From an uncultured Subdoligranulum sp. (GTDB lineage: Bacteria; Bacillota_A; Clostridia; Oscillospirales; Ruminococcaceae), in assembly GCF_937890665.1 (NCBI RefSeq), contig NZ_CALADU010000281.1, forward strand, positions 1-44,095: DNA of 44,095 bases. Reading direction: 5' to 3'. Below the pieces are notes generated by a model. That model was not told where the DNA came from. It ran no database searches and saw only the letters and a program-made list of their open reading frames with translations. A program made the position numbers and the translations under genes. Positions 8,360 through 42,366 of the stretch are shown here, one piece after another. Numbering within the stretch: position 1 is the stretch's first letter; the number at the start of each line of letters is the position of its first letter.

Positions 8360-10699
8360 ATGCACACCTGTATCACTTTTTTGCGCAAAAACCGAATCTT
8401 TGCATTTTTGCTGTTGGCCGAACTGGTGGTTCTGTTGGTCCAACTGGCAGGACTATTTGGTGAACCTTACCGGCTGGCCTTAACCCCGGACACCTTTACC
8501 AATGAATTTTCTTCCTTTGCCACGCTGACCGAGGATGGCAGTGCCTTACAAATTTATAATAACGAAGGATTTGTCACGGACAAAGGAATCACCTTTTCCT
8601 CCACCCCGGCGGCACTGCCTTCCGGCGCTTATGAGGTGACAGTGAAATACTTTTCCTGTCAAACGCCGGATTCCCCCACTTTTAGTGTCCTGCAAAGCGC
8701 CGGTTCCCTGACCTTTTCCTCCAAGAAAACGCCTTCTGCCGTACATGCCGACACTCTGACGCTGGATGATGGTCACCGTTCCGTCACCACCCGTCTATGG
8801 ATCAGTTCCGGCGCTCGCCTTAGTGATTTTTGCGCCACGTTGCAATACGATGAAGGGCAGTTATACCTGTATTCTATTACTTTTACAGAGCAGCCCATTT
8901 ATCGGGTAACCCGACTGTTCTGTTTTGCAATCTTCTTTGCAGCGATTGATTTCTTATTCTGGCTGCTGTTCGCCACAATAGGTTCCAAGGAGGTCGCACT
9001 CCGCAAGTCTTTACGCATCCCATTGCTGTTGGTTGGAATCACGGTGATTGCCTGCCTGCCTTCTTTCAGCAATCAGTTGTACTATGGGCACGATCTGGGG
9101 TACCACTTGCAGCGAATTTCCGCCATGGCCGAGGAGATTTCCTACGGACAATTCCCGGTGCGCCTGACTACCACCACCCTCAACGGATACGGCTACGCCA
9201 ACCCGCTGTGTTACTGCGAATTGTTCCTATTGCTTCCCGCGCTGCTGTATAACCTGTGGCTACCGTTGCGTACCTGCTACCAAGTGTACATCTTTGCCAT
9301 CACACTGGCAGCCTGTGTCTTCAGCTATCTGTGCTTTGCCAAAATGACAGGAAGCCGCCGGGGCGGTGTATTGGGTGCAGCACTGTATACGCTCTCTCTT
9401 TACCGGTTGGTCTGTGTCTATTTCCGGGCCGCGCTGGGCGAATATACCGCCATGAGTTTCCTGCCTCTGGTTTTGCTGGGCGTCTATGAAATGTACCGTT
9501 GTGAAAAGCCTCGCTTCTCTCAATGGGCCCCTTTGGCTTTTGGTATGGCAGCTTTGGTACAAAGCCATTTGATTTCTACTGAGCTGACGGCCTTGCTACT
9601 ACTACTTTTCTGCCTGCTCACCCTAAAGCGGACGCTCCAACCCGCCCGCTTAGCCGCTTGGTGTAAGGCCGCAGTGCTTGCCTTTGGCCTTAGTGCATGG
9701 TTTTTGCTTCCTTTTATATCCACCGCACTATCCACCAATTTGCAGGTAAACAACCCTTCTGTGGGCAAACCCCAGCAAGACGGTCTCTACCTGATGCAGT
9801 TGGTAAACCCCTTAGGGGTAGGCTTCGGCGGTAGTATGGCCGGTACTTCCAACGATATGAGTCTGACTTTGGGCTTATCCTTGGTGGCTGGTCTTGTTCT
9901 TGTGGCTTGGTGCTTGTGGAATCGGGAACGCCAACCGTTGTCCTTTCCTCTGCGCGTCACAACGGGGTTCGGGTTGCTGGCCGCCGTGCTGACTTTACAG
10001 ATTTTCCCCTGGGATTTTGTGGAAAGCTGGCTGGGTCATACCGTAGGAAAGCTAGCCGGCACATTCCAATATCCATGGCGTTTTCTCTCTCTGGCTACGC
10101 TGTTGCTTTGTGCTGCCACACTGCTGGCATTGCGTCACTTACAAGTCTCCCATCGCCCCGAAGCTCGCCGAGCTGCGGTAGTTCTTGTGCTTTGCTTAGC
10201 CATCACAACTGGTTACTTCCAAATGCAGATGTTGGACGTCACGGATCTGACCGCCAACACCGTCAGCCGCAACGCCACCCGCGAGGTGGGTGTCGGCGAG
10301 TACATGATCGATGGTTGTAGTATCTATGAGACAATTTGGGCACAGCCCAAACCCGGCAGCGATGATTTAACCTTGACCAACTATGAGAAAATAGAAGGCA
10401 CCGCCTATGTAAGTGTGGAAAACACCGGAGCAGAGACTAACATTTCCGTGCCGATCTTCAACTACGGTCACTATATCGCCACCGATGTTGAAACCGGAGC
10501 AGATTTTCCCATTCAAAGCGGAGAGAATGCCCGTATTGTCTTGACAATCCCCGCTGACTACACCGGTACCATTGCCATCTACTGGCAGTCGCCGCTGTGG
10601 TGGCGCGGCAGCGAGGTACTCTCGCTCGTTTGCCTGCTTGGCTGTATTATCTACGTTGGTTGTGGCCGTAAACGTCGTTCCAGATGTCTTAGTTCGTAA
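8360..10699 (+). CDS. Large polytopic membrane protein, PTPS-related/YfhO-like (GT-C-fold candidate)
   Basis: A 779-residue protein. TM1 is at residues about 12-32, followed by an extracytoplasmic beta-rich domain of about 150 residues. From about residue 185 there are ten or more TM helices, and after about residue 610 a second soluble domain and one final TM helix before a basic tail. The sequence YYGHDLGYHLQRISAMAEE...GQFPVRL followed by NGYGYANPLCYCELFLLLPALLY matches the pattern of the membrane domain called 6-pyruvoyl-tetrahydropterin-synthase-related, found in YfhO-like glycosyltransferase relatives. The HD pair of GHDLGYH would be the candidate catalytic loop. A GAGGTAGGG ribosome site precedes the ATG. 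Substrate unknown; surface polysaccharide or teichoic acid decoration is inferred from neighbours. Confidence 0.65.
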   Translation: MHTCITFLRKNRIFAFLLLAELVVLLVQLAGLFGEPYRLALTPDTFTNEFSSFATLTEDGSALQIYNNEGFVTDKGITFSSTPAALPSGAYEVTVKYFSCQTPDSPTFSVLQSAGSLTFSSKKTPSAVHADTLTLDDGHRSVTTRLWISSGARLSDFCATLQYDEGQLYLYSITFTEQPIYRVTRLFCFAIFFAAIDFLFWLLFATIGSKEVALRKSLRIPLLLVGITVIACLPSFSNQLYYGHDLGYHLQRISAMAEEISYGQFPVRLTTTTLNGYGYANPLCYCELFLLLPALLYNLWLPLRTCYQVYIFAITLAACVFSYLCFAKMTGSRRGGVLGAALYTLSLYRLVCVYFRAALGEYTAMSFLPLVLLGVYEMYRCEKPRFSQWAPLAFGMAALVQSHLISTELTALLLLLFCLLTLKRTLQPARLAAWCKAAVLAFGLSAWFLLPFISTALSTNLQVNNPSVGKPQQDGLYLMQLVNPLGVGFGGSMAGTSNDMSLTLGLSLVAGLVLVAWCLWNRERQPLSFPLRVTTGFGLLAAVLTLQIFPWDFVESWLGHTVGKLAGTFQYPWRFLSLATLLLCAATLLALRHLQVSHRPEARRAAVVLVLCLAITTGYFQMQMLDVTDLTANTVSRNATREVGVGEYMIDGCSIYETIWAQPKPGSDDLTLTNYEKIEGTAYVSVENTGAETNISVPIFNYGHYIATDVETGADFPIQSGENARIVLTIPADYTGTIAIYWQSPLWWRGSEVLSLVCLLGCIIYVGCGRKRRSRCLSS

Positions 10700-10931: not shown

Positions 10932-11621
10932 ATGCGTAACTGGTGTATGCGTCACCCCATCGGTTTCATGGCGCTGTATCTTTTGTTCTACCTTCTCTGC
11001 TTTACGCTGCTGGAAAAATACGTTACCGTCCCCGACCTATGGGTGCATTGCCGTCTGGATGACTTGATCCCATTCTGCAAATATGCCATCATCCCCTACT
11101 CGATGTGGTTCCCGTGGATTCCCTTCACCCTGTTCTACATACTCTGGCGCGGTCCCCGCAACGAGTTTTGGCGGCTTTGCTTGCCTCTCTTTACCGGCAT
11201 GACGCTGTCGCTATTGTTTTATCTTATCGTTCCCAACGGATTGACTCTGCGCCCACACACCATTGCCGGCACAGACTTTTTTGCCAATGCGGTGCGCGCC
11301 TTGTACCGCACCGATACCCCCACCAATGTCTGTCCTTCCATCCATGTGTTCAATTCGGTTACCTTGATGTTTGCCTATTATCGGAGTAGCTGCTTCGATA
11401 AACCGGGTCGCCGTTGGATGCGTCCGGCTGCCGTGATTCTTTGCACTGCCATCACCTGTTCCACAATGCTGCTCAAACAGCACAGCGTCATCGATGTAGT
11501 TTTCGGGATCCTTTTGGCGCTGGCTTTGGATTACGCCGCCACCCTTTTGGAGTACGAAACTTCTCCGTTGCGTCGTCAGCAGAGGCTAAAGCGCAAACAG
11601 CGTCTGCCGGAATGGTGGTAA
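10932..11621 (+). CDS. PAP2-superfamily membrane phosphatase
   Basis: A 229-residue integral membrane protein with about five to six TM helices. Type 2 phosphatidic-acid-phosphatase signatures are present: CPSIHVFNS at residues 134-142 (the PSxH motif, His138) and KQHSVIDVVFG at 182-192 (the HxxxD motif, His184 and Asp188). The first motif (KxxxxxxRP) is degenerate; LTLRPHT at about 105-111 may be its remnant. Members dephosphorylate lipid phosphates such as undecaprenyl pyrophosphate, phosphatidate or inositol-phospholipid intermediates. Recycling of a polyprenyl carrier would suit the neighbouring glycan operons but is inference. AGGAG lies 7 bases before the ATG. Confidence 0.85.
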   Translation: MRNWCMRHPIGFMALYLLFYLLCFTLLEKYVTVPDLWVHCRLDDLIPFCKYAIIPYSMWFPWIPFTLFYILWRGPRNEFWRLCLPLFTGMTLSLLFYLIVPNGLTLRPHTIAGTDFFANAVRALYRTDTPTNVCPSIHVFNSVTLMFAYYRSSCFDKPGRRWMRPAAVILCTAITCSTMLLKQHSVIDVVFGILLALALDYAATLLEYETSPLRRQQRLKRKQRLPEWW

Positions 11622-11633
11622 ACGAAAAAATAA

Positions 11634-11669
11634 CCCCCCTGCAACCTTTTGGTTGCAGGGGGTTTTTAT
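11634..11669. terminator. Bidirectional intrinsic terminator between the PAP2 gene and the glycan operon
   Basis: Stem CCCCCTGCAACC / GGTTGCAGGGGG with a TTTT loop, TTTTTATT following on plus, and TTATTTTTT on the minus strand. It closes the eight-gene minus-strand operon as well as the plus-strand phosphatase gene. Confidence 0.9.
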
Positions 11670-11672
11670 TGC

Positions 11673-12020
11673 TTACAAAGCATAGACGACAATACCAATA
11701 AGAATCAAGGCTAGCGCCGCAATCTTTTTGGGATTCATTTTTTCGTGAAAGATCGTCACGCCAAAAATCGTGACATACAGATATCCGGTCGCTTCCAGCA
11801 CCGGCCCCACATTCAGCGGTACGCCCTTGTAAGCCAGCATCGTGAGCAATGTACAGCCCACGAACAGCCCATACCCCAGAATTACCCGCCAGTCCGTATA
11901 TTCTGCCAGTAATGAACTATGCTCGCGCAAAGCCGCTTTTTTCAGCAACACTTGGGAAACAGATGCCAAAAACGTACTGCACAGGTACAGAAGTACATAG
12001 GGAAGTTGTGCTTCGCTCAT
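11673..12020 (-). CDS. Small four-TM EamA/SMR-type protein, ArnE/ArnF-like (second of a pair)
   Basis: A 115-residue protein with four predicted TM helices. Its C-terminal half (VPLNVGPVLEATGYLYVTI followed by HEKMNPKKIAALALILIGI) follows the pattern of small multidrug-resistance/EamA half-transporters, including the ArnE-ArnF pair that flips undecaprenyl-phosphate-aminoarabinose. Its start overlaps the stop of the other SMR gene by 4 bases (ATGA), so the two are translationally coupled and likely form an antiparallel heterodimer. As last gene of an operon with a polyprenyl-P glycosyltransferase and GT-C proteins, flipping of a lipid-linked sugar is the preferred role; drug or polyamine export is the alternative. 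Confidence 0.75.
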   Translation of the reverse strand: MSEAQLPYVLLYLCSTFLASVSQVLLKKAALREHSSLLAEYTDWRVILGYGLFVGCTLLTMLAYKGVPLNVGPVLEATGYLYVTIFGVTIFHEKMNPKKIAALALILIGIVVYAL

Positions 12021-12376
12021 GCGTCATCCTCCCCTTCATGATCGGCTCGCACAAACAGCACGATGCCCGCAATGATAATAATGGCTCCTACAATCTGCCG
12101 CGGGGTAACGCCTTCATCAAAAAGAAGGAAGCCCAGCAAAATTCCCCACACCACGGTGACCGCCTTGTTGGCATATGCGGTGGTCAGCGGTAGGTGTTTG
12201 ATGACTTGTTGCCACCCAAATGCATAAATGACCAAGGCCAACAACATAGCACCATACAGCAAAATGAAAGCTCCGCTCATAAACGGTTGCCGAGCCGCCA
12301 GCTTGCTGCATACACTACTGCTGGCATAGATTCCCAAAATCAAATGCAACAGCAAAAACCACTTTGCTTGTTTCAC
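12017..12376 (-). CDS. Small four-TM EamA/SMR-type protein, ArnE/ArnF-like (first of a pair)
   Basis: A 119-residue protein with four TM helices and the EamA/SMR ending GVTPRQIVGAIIIIAGIVLFVRAD. It overlaps the upstream GT2 stop by 4 bases and the downstream SMR partner by 4 bases, so three genes are tightly coupled. The charged tail HEGEDDA is not shared by its partner, giving the asymmetry expected of heterodimeric SMR pairs. The partner and neighbours point to translocation of a polyprenyl-phosphate sugar rather than drug export, by analogy with ArnE/ArnF; this is inference from context. Confidence 0.75.
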   Translation of the reverse strand: MKQAKWFLLLHLILGIYASSSVCSKLAARQPFMSGAFILLYGAMLLALVIYAFGWQQVIKHLPLTTAYANKAVTVVWGILLGFLLFDEGVTPRQIVGAIIIIAGIVLFVRADHEGEDDA

Positions 12377-13314
12377 TGGGCATCCTCCTCATGGTGCAGA
12401 TACTCCCGGGCCACATACTGCGGCGCCGCATTGCTGCACATATAAATGCGGCCCACATACTCTCCAATCAGACCCAGCACAATAAGGATTGCGCCTCCCA
12501 GCAACAAAAGCAGCGCCGTGGTGGAAGCCCACCCCAAAGGAGCCGTGTGCTTGGTAAAATGGTTAATCAGAATATAAATCAAATACAGAAAACCGGCCCC
12601 TGCAGAAATTGTGCCGAAATAAGTGGCGATGCGCAGCGGCTTGACCGAAAAAGAGGTAAAGCCATTCATCCATAGCCCCAACAATTTGCCCAACGTATAG
12701 CCGGAGCGGCCTTCCTCCCGAGCACGATGATGCACCGACACATTACAAATATTTTTGGTCGTGCGCAGCACCAAACCGATCACGTACGGATAGCAATGCT
12801 CGTAGCGCAGCATTTCCTCCACCACAAAACGACGCGCCGCGAAATAACTGTTCACCACCAGTTCCGGCGGTTTTCCCAGCATAACTTCGGTCATTTTGCT
12901 GTTGACCCAACTGCCCAAATTACGCCATCCTGCCTGTCGTTTGTTGTCGTAGCGGGCATAGACTACGTCGTAGCCTTCCTCCAACTTATTCAGCAAAAGC
13001 CCCACTTCATTCGCCGGAGTCTGTCCATCATCATCCAAACAAACGATGATGTCACCGCTGCACTGGTGAAAGCCAGCCATCAACGCAGCATGCTGCCCAA
13101 AGTTGCGGGCCAAATCCACCCCTTGCACATGAGAATCTGCCGCCACCAAACGGCGGATCGTGCCAAGGGTGTCATCCGGAGAACAATCGTTGACCAGCAC
13201 AATCTCGTATTCGTACTGCGGCAAGGTTTTCATCGTATCGGTAATTTCCTGCACCACATCGGTCAGAGTATGCTCGGAGCGATAACAGGGAATTACATAG
13301 GATATTTTTTTCAT
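12373..13314 (-). CDS. Family 2 glycosyltransferase, ArnC/GtrB-like polyprenyl-phosphate sugar synthase
   Basis: A 313-residue protein: cytoplasmic GT-A domain (KKISYVIPCYRSE start; metal-binding CLDDDGQTP about 90 residues in, where ArnC has DADLQNP) and two C-terminal TM helices with the closing LGLIGEYVGRIY motif typical of ArnC, GtrB and dolichol-phosphate-mannose synthases. It should move a sugar from a nucleotide to undecaprenyl phosphate at the inner membrane face. I start at ATG 13314, so the protein begins MKKISYV. An in-frame ATG at 13350, overlapping the upstream gene, would add 12 residues and lacks a ribosome site; AAGGAG lies 15 bases before 13314, longer than usual. Its stop overlaps the first SMR gene. 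Confidence 0.88.
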   Translation of the reverse strand: MKKISYVIPCYRSEHTLTDVVQEITDTMKTLPQYEYEIVLVNDCSPDDTLGTIRRLVAADSHVQGVDLARNFGQHAALMAGFHQCSGDIIVCLDDDGQTPANEVGLLLNKLEEGYDVVYARYDNKRQAGWRNLGSWVNSKMTEVMLGKPPELVVNSYFAARRFVVEEMLRYEHCYPYVIGLVLRTTKNICNVSVHHRAREEGRSGYTLGKLLGLWMNGFTSFSVKPLRIATYFGTISAGAGFLYLIYILINHFTKHTAPLGWASTTALLLLLGGAILIVLGLIGEYVGRIYMCSNAAPQYVAREYLHHEEDAQ

Positions 13315-13336
13315 GGTTGTTGCGTTCTTCTCCTTT

Positions 13337-14878
13337 TTATTGCACGTCATCTGGACGTTCGTACACGACCAGATCCTCTGTGGAGACCAGCTCCTGCCAA
13401 CCTTCGGTTAAAAGGCGGTCTTCGGTTTCCGTATCATGGCCTACCATTACATATTTTGAGTAAATTGGATTTTCCGATTTTCTTAAATAACTTCGTTTAT
13501 CAAACTGAATGCCCATACCTGCCGGCACCGCATACAAATAACCATGGAAAACGTCCTCCCCAAAAGCATAGGCGAGGGTATACTCCCAAGGATCATCGCT
13601 ATCGTTTGACTCCATCGCTTTCTCCAATGCTGTAGAAACAGTTTGTATCTGTGCATCCATTTGCGCATCATAAGTAGGCAACGGATTCAACTCCAAGCTT
13701 TTAGGGAGCAACCCCAAAAAGACAACAGAAAGCAACGCAATCCACCAAACACCACGATATTCATATACACAGGCTGCCAACAGAACAATCCCCAGCATAG
13801 TACAATGTCTAGACATGGGGGACACAGAATAAAACGCAAACATTGCCAACAAGCCTGTACACGCACAGAGCAGTGCGTACACTCTTATTTGAACATTCCG
13901 TTTACGCCTAATATCGATCACAACACTCAACAGCGTTGTCGCAATCAGGAAAAGCAGCCCCAAAAAGGCAATCGCTTGCTCCGTAGCCCAGCCATTGAGC
14001 ATAGGGTTAAGATAATCGCCCCACATAGACTTCATTTGCTGTAAAATTCGCTTGATCTCATATACCACAGCTCGTATGCCATGGCCTTCAAACAGCAACT
14101 GAAAAGCCGTGTAGTCTACATCGATGCCTTCATAATAAGGTGCATTACACCATGCCGTTACCACAAAGTAGCCTATGATGGAAAAGACCGCTAATGCCGC
14201 ACTGGCAATCGCCCATTTAGATCGTCTTTTCCATAACACCAAAATAGGAAAAATCCAAAACAAAACGGTGTAAGCCCGTACCACCGTAATCAGGAAACAA
14301 GCCACCGCCAAAAGAACATACCATTTTATGCTCCAGTTGCGTTGCAAGGAAACAGAGGCTCCCACGATAACAAGAATCAAAAAGTAGAGCACCGGTTCGG
14401 CAGTTCCCGTAAATACTTGTTGAACCGCAGTCCACAGGCAACCTGCTAAAATAGCAAAAAAAACTTGTTGTTTTCCAGTCAGTTTTGCTCCATAAGCAAA
14501 AAAGACCCATCCTGCAATGGCAAAGAGGACATTGCACCAAAACATCGCATTAACGCCAGTTCCCACCAAGAGCCCCGGTATTGCATACAAATAAATAAGG
14601 ACCGGTCCCCATGCACCAAAATGCCCCACCGAAGCATGCGTTTCATTATAGCCAAAATATCCTCGTGGTTGTCCATCAGACAAGATTCCGGCCATCTGCC
14701 GGCTGTAAATCACATCATCATTGAGCTGGCGGGTCGGAAGCCAAAAGTTCCATAAATCTTGATCGTGATAAACAGCAGCATAGATTACAAATAGAAAAAT
14801 CACTGCGCATACCGTCAGCCAAAGAACCTGCCGCCAACTAGATTTTTCTTTCCATCTTTTTATTGACATCCAATTCAT
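13337..14878 (-). CDS. GT-C-like membrane glycosyltransferase, paralogue A
   Basis: A 513-residue polytopic protein, about ten or more TM helices, with a soluble C-terminal tail of about 110 residues. The first outside loop carries LNDDVIYSRQMAG; the adjacent acidic pair is in the place of the catalytic acid of GT-C enzymes such as ArnT. The tail has DPWEYTLAYAFGEDVFHGY, PAGMGIQFD, GHDTETEDRLL and ends with GWQELVSTEDLVVYER. Its ATG overlaps the stop of paralogue B (ATGA), so translation is coupled. Base composition is visibly more A/T-rich than paralogue C. It probably transfers the lipid-linked sugar to a surface acceptor; acceptor and sugar are unknown. Confidence 0.75.
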   Translation of the reverse strand: MNWMSIKRWKEKSSWRQVLWLTVCAVIFLFVIYAAVYHDQDLWNFWLPTRQLNDDVIYSRQMAGILSDGQPRGYFGYNETHASVGHFGAWGPVLIYLYAIPGLLVGTGVNAMFWCNVLFAIAGWVFFAYGAKLTGKQQVFFAILAGCLWTAVQQVFTGTAEPVLYFLILVIVGASVSLQRNWSIKWYVLLAVACFLITVVRAYTVLFWIFPILVLWKRRSKWAIASAALAVFSIIGYFVVTAWCNAPYYEGIDVDYTAFQLLFEGHGIRAVVYEIKRILQQMKSMWGDYLNPMLNGWATEQAIAFLGLLFLIATTLLSVVIDIRRKRNVQIRVYALLCACTGLLAMFAFYSVSPMSRHCTMLGIVLLAACVYEYRGVWWIALLSVVFLGLLPKSLELNPLPTYDAQMDAQIQTVSTALEKAMESNDSDDPWEYTLAYAFGEDVFHGYLYAVPAGMGIQFDKRSYLRKSENPIYSKYVMVGHDTETEDRLLTEGWQELVSTEDLVVYERPDDVQ

Positions 14879-16404
14879 TGAGGAAAATCCTCCTGTCGCT
14901 CATACACGACCAGATCTTCGGTCGATACCAGCTCCTGCCAGCCGTCGGTCAAAAGGCGTTCTTCGGTTTCCGTATCATGGCCTACCATTGCGTAACGGGC
15001 ACGAATCGGGTTGGCATCATCTGCCAGATACTCACTTTGATCAAACTGGATTCCCATGCCCGCCGGAACAGAATATAAGTAACCGTGAAAGACACCGTCT
15101 CCCCACGCATACGCAAGTGTAAAATCCCACGGATCTTTGCTGGAACGTTCTTCCACACATTGCTGCAAAGCCTCTTCCACTTGTACCATCTGCTGGTCCA
15201 TTTCAGCAGAATAGGTAGGAAGATTGGCAACTGTTAAATTCATTGGCAAAAACAATACACACAAAGGAATTACCGCCACAAAAGCAACCGCGTCCTCGCC
15301 GATCAGGACACACAGCATCCATACACAAAGCATCACAAGATGTCGCTGAATTACACCCGCAGAATACACAAGGAAGATAGCACCTAAGATAAGCACAATG
15401 CAGAAAAGTGTTATTCCTTTGAACAAGACGGGTCTTTTGTGCGTCCAATCATACACAAGGCACCCCAGCATCACCAGAAAAAGAATACCAAAGATAAGGA
15501 TAGCTCGTCCCTGCTCCTGAGGTTGTCCTGACAAGGTCAACACCGTACTTTGATACAGGAAAGAAATTCCCTCTTTCACACGATCGATTTCGTACCAAAT
15601 CGCCTGTCCGATTTTTCCCTCTAAGAGAAATTGTACTCCTTGTGTATCCGTCCCCATGCCTTCGTAATAGGGTGCATTGCAATACGCCTCACTGAAACCA
15701 AAAAGTAACAAAGATATCCCAGCAATTACAATTCCCAAAAGTCTATATTTGTGTCCTTTTTTCCATGTTAATGCCAAGGGAAACAGCCACAAAAGCACTG
15801 TATATGCCCGCGTCACTGTAGTCAAAAAGCAAGCAAGTGCAGCAACCCCGAAAAACAAAGGTCGAACGCGCTCCCGCATAGAAAAGCAGGCACCAAACAA
15901 AATTAAAATCAACGTATATTGAATGGGTTCGGAAGAGCCCGAGAAAACCTGCTCCAGAGGAAGCCACGCACAAACAAAAGCAAGCCCCAAAACAATTTGT
16001 TGCTTACACGATATTTTTGCACAGCAGACAAAAACTCCCCATCCTACCAGAAAGAGAATCACATTGCTCCAAAATACGGTGTTGACACCCGTTCCAATGA
16101 AAAGGCTTGGCAGCGCTTGCAAATAAACCAGCAACGGCCCCCATCCTCCGAAGTGCCCAATCTGCGCAGCACTTTCATTATATCCAAAAACACCTTTAGG
16201 ATGACCATAAGCCAGAACTCCCACAACTTGACGATTGTAAAATACCTCGTCATTGTTCATTCCGGTAGCCAACCAAATATGCTTCCAATCTTTATCATGA
16301 TAGGCAAGAATGAAAGCCACACCAAGCACCAAAACAGCACAGAATAGGCAAAACGCTTTTTGCTTCCACCTAAATTCACTTTGCTTTATCTCTAGCGTTT
16401 TCAT
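14875..16404 (-). CDS. GT-C-like membrane glycosyltransferase, paralogue B
   Basis: A 509-residue homologue of the genes on both sides. The conserved first loop is MNNDEVFYNRQVVGVL (acidic pair DE), followed by GYNESAAQIGHFGGWGP, then many TM helices, and the shared tail with DPWDFTLAYAWGDGVFHGY, PAGMGIQFD and the same closing GWQELVSTEDLVVYER. An AGAGGAGA ribosome site sits about 12 bases upstream of the ATG. It is separated from paralogue C by 193 bases, the only large gap in the operon. That gap has a small AGACT/AGTCT hairpin and A/T-rich sequence but no promoter I can call with confidence. Confidence 0.75.
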   Translation of the reverse strand: MKTLEIKQSEFRWKQKAFCLFCAVLVLGVAFILAYHDKDWKHIWLATGMNNDEVFYNRQVVGVLAYGHPKGVFGYNESAAQIGHFGGWGPLLVYLQALPSLFIGTGVNTVFWSNVILFLVGWGVFVCCAKISCKQQIVLGLAFVCAWLPLEQVFSGSSEPIQYTLILILFGACFSMRERVRPLFFGVAALACFLTTVTRAYTVLLWLFPLALTWKKGHKYRLLGIVIAGISLLLFGFSEAYCNAPYYEGMGTDTQGVQFLLEGKIGQAIWYEIDRVKEGISFLYQSTVLTLSGQPQEQGRAILIFGILFLVMLGCLVYDWTHKRPVLFKGITLFCIVLILGAIFLVYSAGVIQRHLVMLCVWMLCVLIGEDAVAFVAVIPLCVLFLPMNLTVANLPTYSAEMDQQMVQVEEALQQCVEERSSKDPWDFTLAYAWGDGVFHGYLYSVPAGMGIQFDQSEYLADDANPIRARYAMVGHDTETEERLLTDGWQELVSTEDLVVYERQEDFPQ

Positions 16405-16597
16405 GCAAAGACTAGTTCTCCTCTATCTTATTCTGTACGGCTGATTAGCCCTAGGTTCCCTGTTTTCCGCTGTCTCTCCGATTCCAAACATCTTCGACCT
16501 AAAACCGATGTTTCTCAGTTATAAATTCCTAAGTAGACTCGCAAGTCTGCCGTTCATAACAGCATGCTGCTTTTCCACACATCAGTTGCAGCACCTC

Positions 16598-18100
16598 TTA
16601 CATCCGTTCATACACGACCAAATCTTCGGTTGAAACCAACTCTTGCCAGCCGTCGTTCAACAAGCGTTTTTCGGCATCGGTGCCGTGATTCACCATAGCA
16701 TACCGCGAGTAAATCGTGTTGTTGGGATCTGCCAGATAGGTGTTCCAGTCAAACTCAATGCCCATACCCGCCGGCACTGCATACAGATACCCATGGAACA
16801 CATCGTCATCATAGGCATAGGCCAAGGTATAGTCCCACGGGTCATCGCTCTGCCGCGCCTCTACACTGTCGGTCAGCGCTGTTTCCACCGCAGCGATTTG
16901 CGTTTCCATCTCGGGAAAGCGGGTCGACAGGCTGCTCCGCTCAGCATTGATAGGCAGCAGCAAAATCGCCAGTACTGGCAAATAGAACTTGAACTGCGAT
17001 GCATTTTCTACTGTCAGAGCGCCCAACATCAACATGCAAAGCAGCATTAAATGCCGCGGCGCGATGCTATACATAAATACCAACACCAACAAAACCAGTC
17101 CCGCGCAAGCCAGTGCAGCGGCTTTAAAGCGATAGGGACGGCCCCGACGTATATCCGTCAGGAAACAAACCAGCGTTACCAGTACCAGAACAAGAAAAAT
17201 CACACAACCTACGCCAAGATAGCGCGGATCTCCTTGCACCGTAGGTACAATATCGACCCAAACTGTGCGCAACGCTTTTGCCGCATGTTCCAGTTCATAC
17301 TGTATTGCCCCCACCAAATCACCGCGCAGGAGCATGCGCAAGCCTTCAAAATCCATGCCTCCACCGCTGAAATATGGTGCCGCAAGTTTTGTCATGGAGA
17401 AAAGTGCCAGTCCAAAGCTGACCAAGGCCGTTCCCCCGCAAAGAATACGCCACCGCTTTTCACGGTTCCACAACGCCACCAGCGGAAACAGCCAAAACAA
17501 CAGCGCATAGGGGCGGAAAATCGTTTCCAACGCGCAGGCAACGATCGCCACGATAAGCCATCCATAGGAAAAATTCCGATATACTGCCACGGAGGCCCCC
17601 ACAATGGTCAATGCCAATGCGTAGTGTAAAGCTTCCGATGCCCCACTGAACACCGAGTTCAAGGGCATCCACAGGCAAACCAGTGTGGCTGCGCAAACCA
17701 TCTGCTGCCAAACTTTCAGCTTTGTCGCCCACGCAAACAAAGCCATCCCGGCAATGGCAAAGACAATATTGCACCAGAACACCGTGTTAACCCCCGCGCC
17801 GAAGAAAAAGGCCGGGATCGCATAGGCCCAAATCAAAAACGGTCCCCAGGTACTGTAACGCCCAATGTCGGCGTGGGTTTCCTGATACCCAAAATAGCCC
17901 TGCGGCCCGCCGTGGGTGATAACACTGACGACCTGCCGGTTGTAGATCACTTCATCATTATCGATATTCGGAGCCATCCACACGTCGGTGAGCGGCGTAC
18001 GGTAAGCCAGCGTATAAAACACCAGCAAAAACACGAGTGCCCCCAAAACGCAGAGCAGCGCGTTGGGGGTCTTTTGTAAAATGTTTCGGATGGTCTTCAC
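16598..18100 (-). CDS. GT-C-like membrane glycosyltransferase, paralogue C, GTG start
   Basis: A 500-residue homologue of paralogues A and B. I place the start at GTG 18100: it lies 4 bases after the stop of the acetyltransferase gene, a GTGGGGG stretch lies 9-11 bases upstream, and the product then matches the others in length and begins VKTIRNILQK before TM1. The longer open frame to 18418 would overlap the acetyltransferase by 300 bases with unlikely composition. Conserved features: NIDNDEVIYNRQVVSVI in the first loop, GYQETHADIGRYSTWGP, then the tail with DPWDYTLAYAYDDDVFHGY, PAGMGIEFD and GWQELVSTEDLVVYERM. More GC-rich than A and B. Confidence 0.75.
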   Translation of the reverse strand: MKTIRNILQKTPNALLCVLGALVFLLVFYTLAYRTPLTDVWMAPNIDNDEVIYNRQVVSVITHGGPQGYFGYQETHADIGRYSTWGPFLIWAYAIPAFFFGAGVNTVFWCNIVFAIAGMALFAWATKLKVWQQMVCAATLVCLWMPLNSVFSGASEALHYALALTIVGASVAVYRNFSYGWLIVAIVACALETIFRPYALLFWLFPLVALWNREKRWRILCGGTALVSFGLALFSMTKLAAPYFSGGGMDFEGLRMLLRGDLVGAIQYELEHAAKALRTVWVDIVPTVQGDPRYLGVGCVIFLVLVLVTLVCFLTDIRRGRPYRFKAAALACAGLVLLVLVFMYSIAPRHLMLLCMLMLGALTVENASQFKFYLPVLAILLLPINAERSSLSTRFPEMETQIAAVETALTDSVEARQSDDPWDYTLAYAYDDDVFHGYLYAVPAGMGIEFDWNTYLADPNNTIYSRYAMVNHGTDAEKRLLNDGWQELVSTEDLVVYERM

Positions 18101-18104
18101 GGGC

Positions 18105-18662
18105 TTATTCCCCCACTCTGTCGCTGTCTGCCGGGTTTGGGGACAATTTAGCCATAAACACAACGTCGCGGTAACGTCCTTCCAGCAATACCATATCGTG
18201 GAACGTTCCTTCCAGCACAAAGCCAGCCTTTTCATAACTGCGGCGCGCCGGCAAATTTTCTGCCAGCAGGCGCAAGCTGATCCGGTGCAGCCCCAGTGTT
18301 TTGAATCCAAAGTCGGTAAACAGTCGGGCGGTTTCGGTACCCAGTCCCTTTCCGCGGGCGTCCGGTTCCCCGATGAAAATACCATACTCCGCGCTATGGT
18401 TTTTGCAGTCCATATCACGGTAGTAGACCGAACCCACCGGTTGTCCCGTAACTTTCTCCTCGATGATATACTGGACTACCTGCCCAGTGGCCACCTTGGC
18501 AGCCAGCCAATGACGGTGCATCTCCGGCGTGAATTTCTCACGGAAAATAAAATTTTCCATCACCGAAGGTGTATTCCGCCACGCAACGATATGTTCGGTA
18601 TCCGCATCGGTAATGGGGCGCAAAACGACCCGTTCCCCCACAAGGCGCGGCAATGACTCCAT
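18105..18662 (-). CDS. GNAT-family N-acetyltransferase, probably acting on an amino-sugar nucleotide
   Basis: A 185-residue GNAT protein of the RimJ/PseH-like type: RLVGERVVLRPITDADTEHIVAWRN at the start is the common beta1-alpha1 pattern, and the acetyl-CoA pyrophosphate loop is ARGKGLGTETARL near residue 102-114, followed by LGLHRISLRLLAENLPARRSYEKAGF. It lies directly downstream of the WecE-type aminotransferase (61-base gap). In known pathways a GNAT enzyme (WecD, PseH) acetylates the new amino group made by such an aminotransferase, so the same role is inferred here. A ribosomal-protein or antibiotic acetyltransferase cannot be excluded from sequence alone. Four bases separate its stop from paralogue C. 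Confidence 0.8.
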   Translation of the reverse strand: MESLPRLVGERVVLRPITDADTEHIVAWRNTPSVMENFIFREKFTPEMHRHWLAAKVATGQVVQYIIEEKVTGQPVGSVYYRDMDCKNHSAEYGIFIGEPDARGKGLGTETARLFTDFGFKTLGLHRISLRLLAENLPARRSYEKAGFVLEGTFHDMVLLEGRYRDVVFMAKLSPNPADSDRVGE

Positions 18663-18723
18663 TCTCGTGTTTCCTTTCTGGTTGTTTGCAGTATGGATGC
18701 TGTGGCATCAACTCCACAACAAA

Positions 18724-19854
18724 TTACTGCGCATAGAAGGCCAGCACCGTTTCGATCACACGGTTGCGGTCTTCTTCGGTCAAGCCGTAGTACAGCGGCA
18801 GACGGACCAACCGCTCGCTCTCCTTGGTGGTGTAACGGTCTTCCCCGTCAAACCGGCCAAACTTGAGTCCTGCCGGAGCAGAATGCAGCGGAATGTAATG
18901 GAACACGGCCAAAACGTCCCGTTCCTTCAGGTAGCTGATCAGCGCCGAACGCTCTTCCAAATCTTTACATTTGAGGTAGAACATGTGGGCATTGTGTACA
19001 CAGTCCTGCGGAATCACCGGCAATTCCACCTTGCCGGCCTCTGCCAACGGCTGGAAGGCTGCCCGATAGGCATTCCATGTGGCCATACGATCGTTGTTGA
19101 TCTCGTCGGCATGCAGCAACTGCGCCCACAGATAGGCAGCATTCAGCTCACTGGGCAGATAGCTGTCGCCGAAATCTACCCAGGTATACTTGTCCACCTG
19201 ACCGCGGAAGAACTTAGCGCGGTTGGTGCCCTTCTCTCGCAGAATCTCGGCACGCTCGTTATAGGCGGGGTTGTTGATGACCAGCGCGCCGCCTTCTCCC
19301 ATGGAGTAGTTCTTGGTCTCATGGAAAGAATAGCAGCCAAAATCACCGATAGTGCCCAGAGCCTTACCTTTATATTGGCTCATCATGCCCTGCGCCGCAT
19401 CTTCCACCACCATCAAGCCATGGCGGTGGGCAATGTCCATAATGGTATCCATTTCACAGGCCACACCGGCGTAGTGCATGACCATCAAGACCTTGGTCTT
19501 TTCGGTGATGGCAGCCTCGATCTTGGTCTCATCAATGTTCATCGTGTCCGGGCGGATATCCACAAACACCAGTTTGGCACCGGCCAGCACCGCTGCAGTG
19601 GCCGTGCTGGAGAAGGTATAGCTGGGCAGGATGACTTCATCCCCGGGCTGCAGCCCGCAGAGCAGCATGGCCATATCCAGCGCAGTGGTGCCGCTGGTAG
19701 TCAGCAGCACTTTTTGGGCTGCAAACCGTTCTTCCAACCAAGCATTGCATTTCTTGGTGAAGGCACCGTCACCGCAGATTTTATGCGAATCAATGGCTTG
19801 TTTTACATATTCAATCTCGTCCCCCACACAAGGCGGAACATTAAAAGGAATCAT
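18724..19854 (-). CDS. wecE: dTDP-4-amino-4,6-dideoxygalactose transaminase (WecE/RffA type)
   Basis: A PLP-dependent DegT/DnrJ/EryC1-family sugar aminotransferase of 376 residues. From memory it follows the enterobacterial WecE/RffA protein closely along its whole length: IPFNVPPCVGDEIEYV at the start, PGDEVILPSYTFSSTA, RPDTMNIDETKIEAAIT, HYAGVACEMDTIM, the PLP lysine K181 in SFHETKNYSMGEGGA, IREKGTNRAKFFRGQVDKYTW, and DRYTTKESERLVRLPLYY. The family reaction converts dTDP-4-keto-6-deoxy-glucose to dTDP-4-amino-4,6-dideoxy-galactose with glutamate. A GAAGG ribosome site lies 7 bases before the ATG. First gene of the minus-strand glycan operon, with its own promoter. The dTDP-sugar supply (RmlA/RmlB) is not in the window. 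Confidence 0.93.
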   Translation of the reverse strand: MIPFNVPPCVGDEIEYVKQAIDSHKICGDGAFTKKCNAWLEERFAAQKVLLTTSGTTALDMAMLLCGLQPGDEVILPSYTFSSTATAAVLAGAKLVFVDIRPDTMNIDETKIEAAITEKTKVLMVMHYAGVACEMDTIMDIAHRHGLMVVEDAAQGMMSQYKGKALGTIGDFGCYSFHETKNYSMGEGGALVINNPAYNERAEILREKGTNRAKFFRGQVDKYTWVDFGDSYLPSELNAAYLWAQLLHADEINNDRMATWNAYRAAFQPLAEAGKVELPVIPQDCVHNAHMFYLKCKDLEERSALISYLKERDVLAVFHYIPLHSAPAGLKFGRFDGEDRYTTKESERLVRLPLYYGLTEEDRNRVIETVLAFYAQ

Positions 19855-19897: not shown

Positions 19898-19926
19898 AGT
19901 ATAGCATATTCAGGGAAATTCTACAA
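19898..19926 (-). promoter_or_regulatory. Promoter of the wecE-GT-C-GT2-SMR operon
   Basis: On the minus strand, TTGTAG, 17 bases, TATACT. It is the only good promoter pattern seen upstream of the eight-gene run, and its -35 lies about 10 bases after the stop of the 19937 gene. The -35 hexamer is weak. Confidence 0.55.
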
Positions 19927-20560: not shown

Positions 20561-21727
20561 ATGGAATTTTCCCAACGGTTGGACCTGTTCGGACCTGAGA
20601 TCTTTGCCGCGCTGAACGACAAAAAAGTAGCTCTGGAAGCCGAAGGCCGCCATCTCTTTAACTTAAGCGTAGGTACCCCGGACTTTGCTCCGGCCCCGCA
20701 CATCAAGCAAGCTCTAATCGACGCCGCGCAGAACGACGAAAACTGGAAATACAGCCTGCGCGACCTGCCGGAGCTGCTTCAAACCGTCTGCGACTACTAT
20801 AAACGCCGTTTTGGTGTAGAGGGGCTGCATCCCGAACAGGTGATGAGTTTTTCCGGCAGTCAGGACGGCATCGGCCATTTGGGCCTTGCCCTGTGCAACG
20901 ACGGGGATGTGGTCCTGCTGCCCGACCCCTGTTATCCGGTATTTATGACAGGCTGCATGCTGGGCGGTGCCAAACCGTGGTACTACCGGTTGACCAAGGA
21001 AAATCAGTTCCTGCCGGATGTTTCCTCCATTCCCGAGGAGGTAGCCCGGGCGGCTAAGCTGATGCTGGTCAGCCTGCCTGCCAACCCTGTGGGCAGCATC
21101 GGCACCCCGGAATTGTACGCGGAAATCGTCGCTTTTTGCCGCAAATACGACATTCTGTTGGTACATGACAACGCTTACAGCGACATCATCTTTGACGGTG
21201 CCCACGGCGGCAGCATCTTCAACACGCCGGGTGCCGCCGACTGTGCGGTGGAGTTTTTCAGCCTGAGCAAGAGCTTCAACGTGACCGGCGCCCGCATCAG
21301 CTTTTTGGTAGGCCGCCCCGACGTGGTAGCCGCCTGCAAAAAGCTGCGCACCCAGATTGATTTTGGTATGTTCCTGCCCATCCAAAAGGCAGCGATTGCC
21401 GCCATGACCGGTCCCTTGGACGGTGTGCAGCGGCAGTGTGCCGAATATCAGCGCCGCCGTGACGCGCTGTGCGGCGGACTGCGTAGCATTGGTTGGAATG
21501 TGCCGGACAGCCACGGCAGCATGTTCGTGTGGGCGCCTATCCCCGCCGGCTACGAAACCAGCATGGCGTTCTGCATGGAATTGATTGAAAAGGCCAGCGT
21601 CATCTGCACGCCGGGGTCCAGCTTTGGTCCCAGCGGAGAAGGCTATGTTCGCTTTGCCTTGACCCTGCCTGTGGAAAAGATTCAGGAGGCTGTGGCCGCC
21701 ATCGCCGCCAGCGGCATGATCCGCTAA
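20561..21727 (+). CDS. Class I/II PLP-dependent aminotransferase, LL-DAP aminotransferase-like
   Basis: A 388-residue fold-type I aminotransferase of the AspC/DapL/AlaC group. The PLP lysine is K237 in FSLSKSFNVTGARISF; the cofactor-contacting aspartate is D203 in VHDNAYSDI; the substrate-carboxylate arginine is near the end in GYVRFALT; and the N-terminal LSVGTPDF loop is typical. The sequence pattern is closest to proteins annotated as LL-diaminopimelate aminotransferase or related alanine/aspartate aminotransferases, but the exact amino donor cannot be read. Its own promoter lies immediately upstream, and no partner gene follows, so it is monocistronic. Confidence 0.88.
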   Translation: MEFSQRLDLFGPEIFAALNDKKVALEAEGRHLFNLSVGTPDFAPAPHIKQALIDAAQNDENWKYSLRDLPELLQTVCDYYKRRFGVEGLHPEQVMSFSGSQDGIGHLGLALCNDGDVVLLPDPCYPVFMTGCMLGGAKPWYYRLTKENQFLPDVSSIPEEVARAAKLMLVSLPANPVGSIGTPELYAEIVAFCRKYDILLVHDNAYSDIIFDGAHGGSIFNTPGAADCAVEFFSLSKSFNVTGARISFLVGRPDVVAACKKLRTQIDFGMFLPIQKAAIAAMTGPLDGVQRQCAEYQRRRDALCGGLRSIGWNVPDSHGSMFVWAPIPAGYETSMAFCMELIEKASVICTPGSSFGPSGEGYVRFALTLPVEKIQEAVAAIAASGMIR

Positions 21728-36779: not shown

Positions 36780-36826
36780 GCTATAAAAAAATCCGACGGA
36801 AATATTCCGTCGGATTTTTTTATAGC
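36780..36826. terminator. Bidirectional intrinsic terminator between feoB and the MATE gene
   Basis: Perfect 22-bp arms (36780-36801 and 36805-36826) around a three-base ATA loop, with seven A and seven T inside the stem. The stop codon of the minus-strand MATE gene (36820-36822) lies inside the right arm. Confidence 0.9.
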
Positions 36827-38160
36827 AGCCTTTTCTTGTGGCAGGTATACAGATAATAGGGGATTTCGTACAGCAGCATCACGCACCAGCCGAAGGCACA
36901 CGCCCATGCAATGCCCGTCAACCCCATGCGGGGCGCCAAAACCGCCGCCCCCAACGCGCGCAGACCCGCTTGCAGGCAAGTTCCCAAAAGTGTGGTCGTC
37001 ATCTTGCCCATACCACGGTAGAAGCCCTGAAATCCATTGGTCAAAGCCGGCAATCCGTAGAACAGCGCCATCAAGGCCAGATATTCGCTGCCCAGTGACA
37101 CCACCTGCGCTGCTCCTTCGCCTTTCACAAAAAGTGCTACCAGCGGTTCCCGCAACCACCAAGTCAGCGTTCCCACCAAGGCCCAGTAGCCCAGCTCTAG
37201 CCGCAGACCCGCTGCAAACCCCGGTCGGATGCGCTGTGGTTGGCCTGCCCCACGGTTCTGGGCGATGTAGGTGGTGATCGCACTGGCAATGCTCTGTTCC
37301 GGCGTAAAAGCGAAATCATCCACCCGGGTGACTGCATTGAAGGCCGCAATAGCCTCCACCCCCAACGCATTGACCTGCCCTTGGATCAGCACCTTGCAGA
37401 TGGGCTGCACCGCTTGCTGCAACGCCGTGATCGCGCCATATTGCAAAATACGTCCCAAGAGTTGGGGTTGGATCTTCCATTGGTTGTGCCCCGGGCAGAG
37501 CAGCGGAACCCGGCGTACTAGGTACATTGCCGCCAACAAGGCGCTGGCCGCTTCAGCCACCACGGTGGTTACAGCACTGCATACAATGCCGAAACCCATT
37601 CCGCCGATCAGTACCAGATCCAGCACCGCGTTCAGCACGGCAGAAAAAGCCAGAAAACGCAGCGGCGTTTTGGAATCCCCCACGCTTTTGAGCCCCGCCG
37701 CCAATGCATTATAAAAGAAGGTAAAGGGTGCTCCCAAAAAGGTGATTCGCAGATACACCGCTGTAATACTCAAAATGGAATCCGGCACCGCCAGTGCCTG
37801 CAAAATCCATGGTGTACACAAGATGCCTACCAGAGCCACCCCGCAGCACAGTGCCGCACCAAACAGCAGCGTGGTTGCGAGCGTTTCTCGCAGTGTATCA
37901 GTCTTATCGGCGCCAAAGGCTTCGCTCATCAGAACGCCCGCCCCAATGCAGACCCCGGTGATCGCAAGGATCACCAGATTCATAATGGGACCGGCCACCC
38001 CTTCGGCGGCCAAGGCATCCTGCCCGATGAAACGCCCCACTATGATGGAATCCACTGCGTTGTAGGCCAACTGTAACCAGTTGCCCAGCACCAGCGGCAC
38101 CGCATAGACAAAGAGGTGCCCCAGAGGGGCACCTTGTGTCATGGTACGCACGGGAAGCAC
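36820..38160 (-). CDS. MATE-family (MOP superfamily) transporter
   Basis: A 446-residue membrane protein with twelve predicted TM helices in two similar halves. Typical MATE features are LGNWLQLAYNAVDSIIVGRFIG near the start, AEGVAGPI, and in the second half FNAVTRVDDFAFTPEQSIASAITTYIAQNRGAGQ. MATE proteins exchange Na+ or H+ for drugs; MOP relatives flip lipid-linked sugars. It starts about 10 bases after the stop of the GtrII-like gene, so it is the last gene of the glycan cluster, which makes a lipid-flipping role worth considering. The start is uncertain: GTG 38160, GTG 38151 and ATG 38142 are all in frame, with AAGGGA closest to the first. Its stop overlaps the shared terminator. Confidence 0.88.
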   Translation of the reverse strand: MLPVRTMTQGAPLGHLFVYAVPLVLGNWLQLAYNAVDSIIVGRFIGQDALAAEGVAGPIMNLVILAITGVCIGAGVLMSEAFGADKTDTLRETLATTLLFGAALCCGVALVGILCTPWILQALAVPDSILSITAVYLRITFLGAPFTFFYNALAAGLKSVGDSKTPLRFLAFSAVLNAVLDLVLIGGMGFGIVCSAVTTVVAEAASALLAAMYLVRRVPLLCPGHNQWKIQPQLLGRILQYGAITALQQAVQPICKVLIQGQVNALGVEAIAAFNAVTRVDDFAFTPEQSIASAITTYIAQNRGAGQPQRIRPGFAAGLRLELGYWALVGTLTWWLREPLVALFVKGEGAAQVVSLGSEYLALMALFYGLPALTNGFQGFYRGMGKMTTTLLGTCLQAGLRALGAAVLAPRMGLTGIAWACAFGWCVMLLYEIPYYLYTCHKKRLL

Positions 38161-38170
38161 TTCCCTTCCG

Positions 38171-39757: not shown

Positions 39758-39804
39758 GAAAAAGAGCACCTCTTACACACAGTTCTTGCGAGACTGCCTT
39801 TCTA

Positions 39805-42323: not shown

Positions 42324-42366
42324 GGTATCATCCTGCTTTCCTGCCAAAAAGGCAAATATATGTTTT

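What the first reader, a model, noticed from the sequence alone, without database searches (positions are those of the whole stretch)
11673..19854. Arn-like eight-gene operon for flipping and transferring an amino-deoxy sugar in an apparent Gram-positive
Seen: one strand, tight spacing or 4-base overlaps, one promoter and one terminator enclose a WecE/RffA-type aminotransferase, a GNAT acetyltransferase, three GT-C-like proteins, an ArnC/GtrB-like GT2 and two SMR/EamA half-transporters. Known: in the arn operon ArnB (aminotransferase), ArnC (GT2), ArnE/ArnF (SMR pair) and ArnT (GT-C) modify lipid A. Inference: this is an analogous complete system, making dTDP-4-amino-4,6-dideoxy sugar, acetylating it, linking it to undecaprenyl phosphate, flipping it and decorating a wall glycan, teichoic acid or glycoprotein. 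No formyltransferase/dehydrogenase ArnA is present; acetylation appears to replace formylation. I do not know a described Gram-positive counterpart with this composition.
Basis: partly seen in the sequence, partly recalled or inferred. Interest (0 to 1): 0.85.

Follow-up and report, generated by a model that had tools for sequence, protein, structure and literature searches.

The report
Clostridial amino-sugar surface-decoration operon
This gut bacterium carries a compact set of genes that most likely makes an unusual acetylated amino sugar, flips it across the membrane on a lipid and attaches it to a surface polymer; the machinery resembles an enterobacterial lipid A modification but is a separate, conserved clostridial version with a variable number of attaching enzymes.

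Summary
Nearest relatives are Gemmiger (Oscillospiraceae). WecE is a true family member; the GT2 is ArnC/GtrB-like; the three GT-Cs are paralogues whose modelled copy has a GT-C fold (first Foldseek hit ArnT); modelled SMR1 has an SMR fold. Nine of nine Gemmiger loci share the order WecE-GTCx-GNAT-GTCa, followed by GT2-SMR1-SMR2 in eight (one contig ends early). The window lacks GTCx and carries two extra, AT-richer GT-Cs. In 391 clostridial genomes, 20 of 21 with strong SMR1 also have WecE. The SMR pair is unlike drug exporters: SMR1 has Lys/Arg (25/25) and SMR2 Glu/Asp (24/25) at about the exporters' binding-site Trp. It works like Arn but is not Arn: no ArnA or ArnD, no ArnT sequence similarity, no LpxC in six relatives. 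Best filed as a new variant of the Gram-positive multi-component transmembrane glycosylation systems, with a Fuc4NAc-type donor, an SMR-pair flippase and a variable GT-C array. All reactions are inferred; the acceptor is unproven, RgpF-type rhamnan being my guess for Gemmiger.

The parts
18724..19854 (-). WecE: dTDP-4-keto-6-deoxyglucose C4-aminotransferase (376 aa), expected product dTDP-4-amino-4,6-dideoxy-D-galactose
   Evidence: NF008687 635.9 bits (cut-off 375) and TIGR02379 633.8 (434.85); WecE structures 4piw/6blg at 573/556 bits, next PDB entry at 160 bits
18105..18662 (-). GNAT N-acetyltransferase (185 aa), proposed 4-N-acetylation
   Evidence: PF13302 96 bits; PseH model 78.9, below its cut-off 93.1; WecD model only 19.7
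16598..18100 (-). GT-C glycosyltransferase a (500 aa), core copy with a clade-a counterpart in 9 of 9 Gemmiger loci
   Evidence: tree clade a, 10 rows, support 100/99; 75% identical to the L001 copy
14875..16404 (-). GT-C glycosyltransferase b (509 aa), accessory copy
   Evidence: AlphaFold2 model pLDDT 88.8, pTM 0.90; Foldseek top ArnT 5ezm E 1.9e-5; GC 0.454
13337..14878 (-). GT-C glycosyltransferase c (513 aa), accessory copy
   Evidence: 42-44% identity among a, b and c; D52 and E77 positions kept; GC 0.449; not modelled
12373..13314 (-). GT2 polyprenyl-phosphate sugar transferase (313 aa)
   Evidence: best PDB relatives ArnC (9hwj, 9bhc, 8vxh), then sll0501 (5ekp); 33% identical to E. coli ArnC
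12017..12376 (-). SMR1 flippase half (119 aa), with Lys71
   Evidence: model pLDDT 89.6; Foldseek top 11 rows all EmrE/Gdx, best E 4.7e-3; K/R at this position in 25 of 25
11673..12020 (-). SMR2 flippase half (115 aa), with Glu76 in the matching column
   Evidence: ArnE profile is best NCBIfam hit, 29.7 bits, below cut-off 92; E/D in 24 of 25; same column as SMR1 Lys71 in A6
19898..19926 (-). candidate extended -10 promoter (TTGTAG-17-TATACT with TGC before the -10)
   Evidence: read from sequence; not returned by the scan, which finds no excess of promoters
11635..11662 (-). bidirectional intrinsic terminator shared with the convergent PAP2 gene
   Evidence: 12-pair stem, 9 GC pairs

Best explanation
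A multi-component transmembrane glycosylation operon. WecE aminates dTDP-4-keto-6-deoxyglucose (an intermediate of the dTDP-rhamnose pathway) to dTDP-4-amino-4,6-dideoxygalactose; the GNAT N-acetylates it; the GT2 moves it to undecaprenyl phosphate; the SMR1/SMR2 heterodimer flips the lipid-linked sugar outward; GT-C enzymes transfer it to an extracytoplasmic acceptor. Several GT-C paralogues share one donor and one flippase, so each probably addresses a different acceptor site or polymer. Shown here: family membership or predicted fold, conserved order in Gemmiger, co-occurrence of WecE with the SMR pair. Inferred: every reaction, the 4-N-acetyl group, the heterodimer, the division of labour among GT-Cs, and the acceptor (for Gemmiger most likely a RgpF-type rhamnan wall polysaccharide, about 0.35).
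For: WecE far above both curated cut-offs, with the HETKNY stretch kept. RmlB over cut-off in 7 of 7 related genomes. GT2 closest to ArnC and sll0501/GtrB. GT-C fold of copy b, with D52 and E77 invariant in 53 aligned homologues and in 28 of 28 tree rows. SMR fold of SMR1. Gene order: WecE, GTCx, GNAT and GTCa in 9 of 9 Gemmiger loci, GT2+SMR1+SMR2 in 8 of 9; L002 ends inside a GT-C. In 391 Clostridia genomes: WecE over cut-off 31, strong SMR1 21, both 20, Fisher p 1e-24, not corrected for kinship; in 10 of these 20 the two lie within 5 kb (coordinates). SMR pair in 8 of 20 WecE neighbourhoods against 0 of 20 control regions (p 0.003); ArnC-like GT2 of 80 bits or more in 15 of 20 against 2 of 20; GNAT of 100 bits or more in 4 of 20 against 0 of 20 (score limits chosen after seeing the data).
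Against: No biochemistry. In the other 10 of 20 genomes WecE and the SMR pair are far apart or on different contigs, and 11 of 31 WecE genomes lack strong SMR1, so some must use another flippase. NCBIfam assigns the SMR halves weakly and unevenly: ArnE is best for both window halves and for 2 of 4 other SMR1 tested, but MdtJ or EbrA for the other 2, and EbrA or phn_DUF6 for 4 of 4 other SMR2, all below cut-off. Five of 25 SMR2 (L133-L137) keep a Glu in TM1, and seven of 25 SMR1 have an Asp at the start of TM1. The GNAT is nearer PseH and spermidine acetyltransferases than WecD. Of 25 distant GT-C loci, 14 show no partner gene in the fetched stretch. Rhamnan as a general acceptor: RgpF is absent from 12 of 12 other carrier genomes searched.
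Confidence: 0.72

Rival explanations
1. Same donor pathway, but the acceptor is protein (O- or N-glycosylation of surface proteins), the GT-Cs acting like PMT or Pgf enzymes or as single-sugar oligosaccharyltransferases.
For: VIA-align rows include STT3, PglB and Pmt as well as ArnT; the GT2 also scores 163.7 bits with PgfS (cut-off 500), which I recall as part of a streptococcal protein glycosylation system; the TagF-type polymerase family PF04464 is absent in 6 of 6 relatives.
Against: GT-C fold similarity does not tell the acceptor; five of five Gemmiger genomes have RgpF genes and LCP-type proteins; several GT-Cs per donor fit site-specific glycan decoration at least as well.
Confidence: 0.25
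2. The SMR pair is an unrelated drug, polyamine or metabolite exporter that happens to sit in the operon; the flippase is elsewhere (GtrA or Wzx type).
For: EbrA, MdtJ and phn_DUF6 models score close to or above ArnE for some homologues; five of 25 SMR2 keep a TM1 Glu.
Against: 24 of 24 strong SMR1 loci have an adjacent SMR2; 20 of 21 SMR1 genomes of the class sample have WecE; the TM1 central glutamate, described as conserved and essential in Gdx, Qac and polyamine SMRs (PMC9574504, passages), is absent in 25 of 25 SMR1 and 20 of 25 SMR2.
Confidence: 0.1
3. WecE and GNAT feed an ordinary Wzx/Wzy or ABC polysaccharide repeat unit, and the GT2/GT-C/SMR part carries a different sugar such as glucose.
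For: In Enterobacteria WecE makes Fuc4NAc for a repeat unit (family knowledge); 11 of 31 WecE genomes lack strong SMR1, and in 10 of the 20 with both the two are not neighbours.
Against: In the window no gene other than the eight lies between WecE and SMR2, and none of the eight is a polymerase, a Wzx or an ABC exporter; in 9 of 9 Gemmiger loci GT-C genes sit on both sides of the GNAT, behind WecE.
Confidence: 0.12

Closest known systems
Arn system (ArnB, ArnC, ArnA, ArnD, ArnT, ArnEF) of E. coli
   Same: DegT-family aminotransferase, ArnC-type GT2 (33% identity), SMR pair, GT-C transferase whose first Foldseek match is ArnT
   Different: WecE instead of ArnB; GNAT instead of ArnA; no ArnD; copy b without BLAST similarity to ArnT; several GT-Cs; no LpxC in six relatives; the SMR TM3 charged pair is Leu/Leu in ArnE and ArnF
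Gram-positive multi-component transmembrane glycosylation systems (CsbB-GtcA-YfhO; L. lactis CsdAB/CD/EF with CflA; S. pyogenes GacI, J, K, L)
   Same: GT-A making undecaprenyl-P-sugar, flippase, GT-C; in L. lactis one flippase serves three polymers (PMC8035078, passages)
   Different: GtrA- or Wzx-type flippase there, an SMR pair here; Glc, Gal or GlcNAc in the passages seen, a dedicated dTDP-amino-sugar branch here
S. mutans serotype c polyrhamnose glucosylation (SccN/SccM, SccP/SccQ)
   Same: two GT-Cs with different site specificity on one polyrhamnose; flippase unidentified there (PMC11754754, passages)
   Different: each GT-C has its own GT-A there; here one GT2 accompanies two or more GT-Cs
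WecE-WecD branch of enterobacterial common antigen (pathway recalled)
   Same: WecE family membership, same expected dTDP-Fuc4NAc
   Different: acetyltransferase is not WecD-like (19.7 bits against cut-off 195.1); sugar proposed to go to a GT2/GT-C route, not to a Wzx/Wzy repeat unit

Membership tests
WecE (TIGR02379 / NF008687) | score above curated cut-off over full length | tested here: met
   633.8 against 434.85 and 635.9 against 375, residues 1-374
GT-C fold glycosyltransferases | GT-C fold | tested here: met
GT-C fold glycosyltransferases | acidic catalytic motif after the first TM helix | tested here: met
   D52 invariant in 53 rows and in 28 of 28 tree rows; catalysis itself not tested
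SMR family | four-helix SMR fold, paired genes | tested here: met
SMR drug/cation exporters (Qac, Gdx, MdtIJ) | central glutamate in TM1 (PMC9574504) | tested here: not met
   absent from both window halves; absent in 25 of 25 SMR1 and 20 of 25 SMR2
ArnE/ArnF lipid flippase equivalogs | score above curated cut-off | tested here: not met
   ArnE 33.3 and 29.7 against 92; ArnF 22.9 against 99 for SMR1 and not listed for SMR2
Arn system | ArnA, ArnD and ArnT sequence homologues | tested here: not met
   none among the eight genes; copy b against ArnT BLASTP E 0.19
Arn system | lipid A acceptor | tested here: not met
   LpxC in 0 of 6 related genomes, 4 of 14 control genomes positive; tested in relatives only, the window's own genome is not held
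Multi-component transmembrane glycosylation system | GT-A with membrane anchor + flippase + GT-C encoded together | tested here: met
   operon anatomy and conservation
Multi-component transmembrane glycosylation system | transfer of sugar from undecaprenyl phosphate to a cell-wall polymer | not testable with these tools
   needs biochemistry

The most novel reading that the evidence does not exclude
A dedicated clostridial anionic-lipid flippase subtype of the SMR family, built as an obligate heterodimer with a Lys/Arg (SMR1) and a Glu/Asp (SMR2) facing each other where exporters have their binding-site Trp, the basic residue holding the undecaprenyl phosphate. In Gemmiger it serves a single Fuc4NAc donor that feeds an exchangeable array of GT-C enzymes (two to at least four per locus, the accessory ones unevenly present and, in the window, AT-rich), so that strains can vary their surface decoration by gaining or losing GT-C genes alone. 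It would also extend Fuc4NAc beyond Gammaproteobacteria.
Probability: 0.4. Interest if true: 0.7.

Novelty: new variant of a known kind. Interest (0 to 1): 0.55.

Why it matters
Surface glycans of gut Clostridia are poorly described; a 2025 review states that even the capsule of Faecalibacterium prausnitzii HTF-F has unknown structure (PMC12413058, passage). A published survey places Fuc4NAc only in Gammaproteobacteria (PMC7725333, passage), and an SMR review places lipid-flipping SMRs mainly in Proteobacteria (PMC9574504, passage). This operon predicts both in Bacillota, including the cultured Gemmiger formicilis ATCC 27749 (L007; recalled to be the type strain), which makes sugar, flippase and GT-C specificity directly testable. 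The charged SMR pair offers a simple mutational test of how an SMR protein moves an anionic lipid; direct evidence for flippase activity was said to be lacking for several such transporters (PMC11127046, passage).

Tried and rejected
Arn membership: rejected. Wall teichoic acid of the TagF type as acceptor: PF04464 absent in 6 of 6 relatives. Rhamnan as a general acceptor: kept as a guess for Gemmiger only, since RgpF is in 5 of 5 Gemmiger genomes but in 0 of 12 other carriers, G006 included. Recent gene conversion at the 3' ends of GT-C b and c: not settled. DNA identity rises to 0.83 in the last block, but amino-acid identity rises as much (0.85); same-residue codons are identical in 20 of 32 in the last stretch against 66 of 180 before it, so a short exchanged tract is possible beside selection on the C-terminal domain. 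PDB sequence search with the GT-C profile: one hit, E 2.3, not a relative. PDB sequence search with SMR2: only hits to receptors and designed proteins, which I take as chance; with SMR1: Gdx-Clo at E 0.05. Rfam: only the tRNA in the window at gathering scores. PADLOC: no match for 7 proteins. Ten paper searches in the held open library listed nothing that I recognised from titles and abstract starts as a WecE + SMR-pair + GT-C system in Gram-positives; subscription papers and preprints are not held, and one search was too loose to be useful, so this is weak evidence of absence.


Full report
What is there. The window is 44,095 bases and its own genome is not held. The eight genes of the finding are present on the minus strand at the stated coordinates. 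The terminator at 11662-11635 has the longest stem of the scan and serves the convergent PAP2 gene as well.

Where it comes from. Of the 34 loci found with the GT-C profile, the nine closest are Gemmiger genomes (Oscillospiraceae, Bacillota), among them G. formicilis ATCC 27749 (L007). The flanking genes are conserved there too: the PAP2 protein (10932-11621) in 7 loci, the large membrane protein (8360-10699) in 5, and the aminotransferase (20561-21727) upstream in 8 of the 9; some contigs end before these places. The operon therefore seems to sit at a fixed chromosomal place.

The SMR pair. Both window halves match the ArnE model best but weakly (33.3 and 29.7 bits, cut-off 92); homologues elsewhere score unevenly. 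SMR1's model is an SMR fold. Profile comparison gives probability 95 for E. coli ArnE with SMR1, 93 with SMR2, and 3 for ArnF with SMR2; ArnF with SMR1 was not run. In 24 homologue pairs plus the window, SMR1 position 71 is Lys or Arg in 25 of 25, and SMR2 position 76 is Glu or Asp in 24 of 25. The two fall in one column of alignment A6, in which E. coli ArnE and ArnF both have Leu. I place this column at the binding-site Trp of Gdx-Clo (W62, named in PMC9574504) by counting along the PLxxAYxxW segment; HMMER's own alignment of SMR1 to Gdx-Clo has a one-residue gap there and sets Lys71 against the next residue, and for SMR2 the match is by motif only, so the placing is good to about one residue. 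A TM1 glutamate is absent in 25 of 25 SMR1 (seven have an Asp at the start of TM1) and in 20 of 25 SMR2; five SMR2 (L133-L137) have one. A Lys/Glu pair in the centre of a heterodimer that binds a lipid phosphate is my inference.

Conservation. WecE, GTCx, GNAT and GTCa are present in this order in 9 of 9 Gemmiger loci, followed by GT2-SMR1-SMR2 in 8 of 9; L002 ends inside a GT-C. The window lacks GTCx, which sits between WecE and GNAT in all nine; whether it lies elsewhere in that genome cannot be seen. A tree of 28 GT-C rows gives clade X (9 rows, 99/98), clade a (10 rows, 100/99) and an accessory clade (5 rows, 96/95) holding window b and c, one copy of L001 and two of L002. Loci thus have two GT-Cs (seven loci), three (L001 and the window) or at least four (L002). 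The window's b and c have GC 0.454 and 0.449 and GC3 0.44-0.45, against 0.52-0.55 and 0.61-0.68 in GT-C a, GT2, GNAT and WecE, which fits later acquisition; the SMR genes are intermediate (0.48-0.50). In L001 the accessory copy is mildly lower in GC than its neighbours, in L002 hardly so. Among the 25 distant loci, 11 have at least one of a DegT aminotransferase, GT2, GNAT or SMR partner in the fetched stretch and 14 show only the GT-C, several on short contigs; L015 has the whole WecE-GNAT-GT2-SMR1-SMR2 set facing a GT-C.

Beyond Gemmiger. In a sample of 391 genomes of the class, WecE is over cut-off in 31 (among 14 named control genomes only E. coli rings) and a strongly matching SMR1 (127 bits or more, next value 51) is in 21. 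Twenty genomes have both, one has SMR1 only (G079), eleven WecE only; Fisher's p is 1e-24, but related genomes are not independent. In 10 of the 20 the two genes lie within 5 kb of each other, in the other 10 far apart or on different contigs (coordinates). In a phylum sample of 398 genomes, 6 have the strong SMR1. In 20 WecE neighbourhoods the SMR pair occurs in 8, against 0 of 20 control regions from the same genomes (p 0.003); ArnC-like GT2 in 15 against 2; GNAT in 4 against 0 (score limits chosen afterwards). The module is thus a recurrent clostridial partnership with loose gene order.

Mechanism. RmlB is over cut-off in 7 of 7 relatives, so the WecE substrate should be available. From family knowledge: WecE makes dTDP-4-amino-4,6-dideoxygalactose; acetylation gives dTDP-Fuc4NAc; an ArnC/GtrB-type GT2 gives the undecaprenyl-phosphate sugar; the flippase moves it; the GT-C transfers it. 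In Arn the formyl group is removed by ArnD; no such enzyme is among the eight genes, so the final sugar should be neutral, which argues against a charge-masking role. No step has been shown biochemically.

Acceptor. LpxC is absent from 6 of 6 relatives and so is the TagF-type polymerase family. Five of five Gemmiger genomes examined have two neighbouring RgpF genes; in the one locus scanned (L116, ten proteins) glycosyltransferases and an epimerase lie beside them, and no polysaccharide exporter was among the ten. Six of six genomes have LCP-type proteins. S. mutans decorates polyrhamnose with two GT-Cs of different site specificity (PMC11754754, passages). Rhamnan is therefore my best guess for Gemmiger, but 12 of 12 other carrier genomes searched lack RgpF, so other acceptors must exist or the guess is wrong.

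What is known. PMC8035078 (passages) describes the Gram-positive systems, with GtrA- or Wzx-type flippases; the words SMR and EamA do not occur in its text. PMC7389260 (passages) discusses ArnE/F as an SMR-type analogue. PMC9574504 (passages) says lipid SMRs are found mainly in Proteobacteria and often have Asn for the central glutamate. PMC7725333 (passages) says Fuc4NAc is found only in Gammaproteobacteria. PMC11127046 (passages) describes a MATE-flippase variant and mentions systems with several candidate epimerases or GT-Cs, one of them in Bacillus. Taken together: a new variant of a known kind, well conserved, with two testable and unusual parts (the charged SMR pair and the variable GT-C array).

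Noticed in passing
window 36820-42347, minus strand: A second likely multi-component system: a PgfS/ArnC-like GT2 (41382-42347; PgfS 320 bits, below its cut-off 500), two tandem GtrII-type genes (39805-41385 and 38171-39769, PF14264) and a MATE protein (36820-38160) right behind them. A MATE-type flippase is described in a related pathway (PMC11127046), but this one could also be an ordinary efflux pump.
   Followed up: partly
window 8360-10699 (+) and 10932-11621 (+): Large membrane protein with only a chance-level match to PF10131, and a PAP2 protein, convergent with the operon and conserved beside it in Gemmiger (5 and 7 of 9 loci); possibly another GT-C-like enzyme and a carrier-lipid phosphatase.
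   Followed up: partly
L133-L137 (SMR loci): SMR2 members that have a Glu in TM1 together with the TM3 acidic residue, possible intermediates between exporter and lipid types.
   Followed up: no
L001-L009, GTCx between WecE and GNAT: A core GT-C clade present in nine of nine Gemmiger loci but missing from the window's operon; whether it lies elsewhere in that genome cannot be seen.
   Followed up: partly
L116 8445-11798 and counterparts in G002-G005: Two neighbouring RgpF genes in five of five Gemmiger genomes searched, suggesting a rhamnose-rich wall polysaccharide; the one paper search aimed at this listed no description for Gemmiger.
   Followed up: partly
L079, L082, L084: WecE followed by a 592-aa membrane protein (in L079 a sub-threshold PMT_2 match), GNAT, GT2 and further large membrane proteins without an SMR pair at the locus; their genomes (G230, G188, G033) carry the SMR pair elsewhere.
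   Followed up: partly
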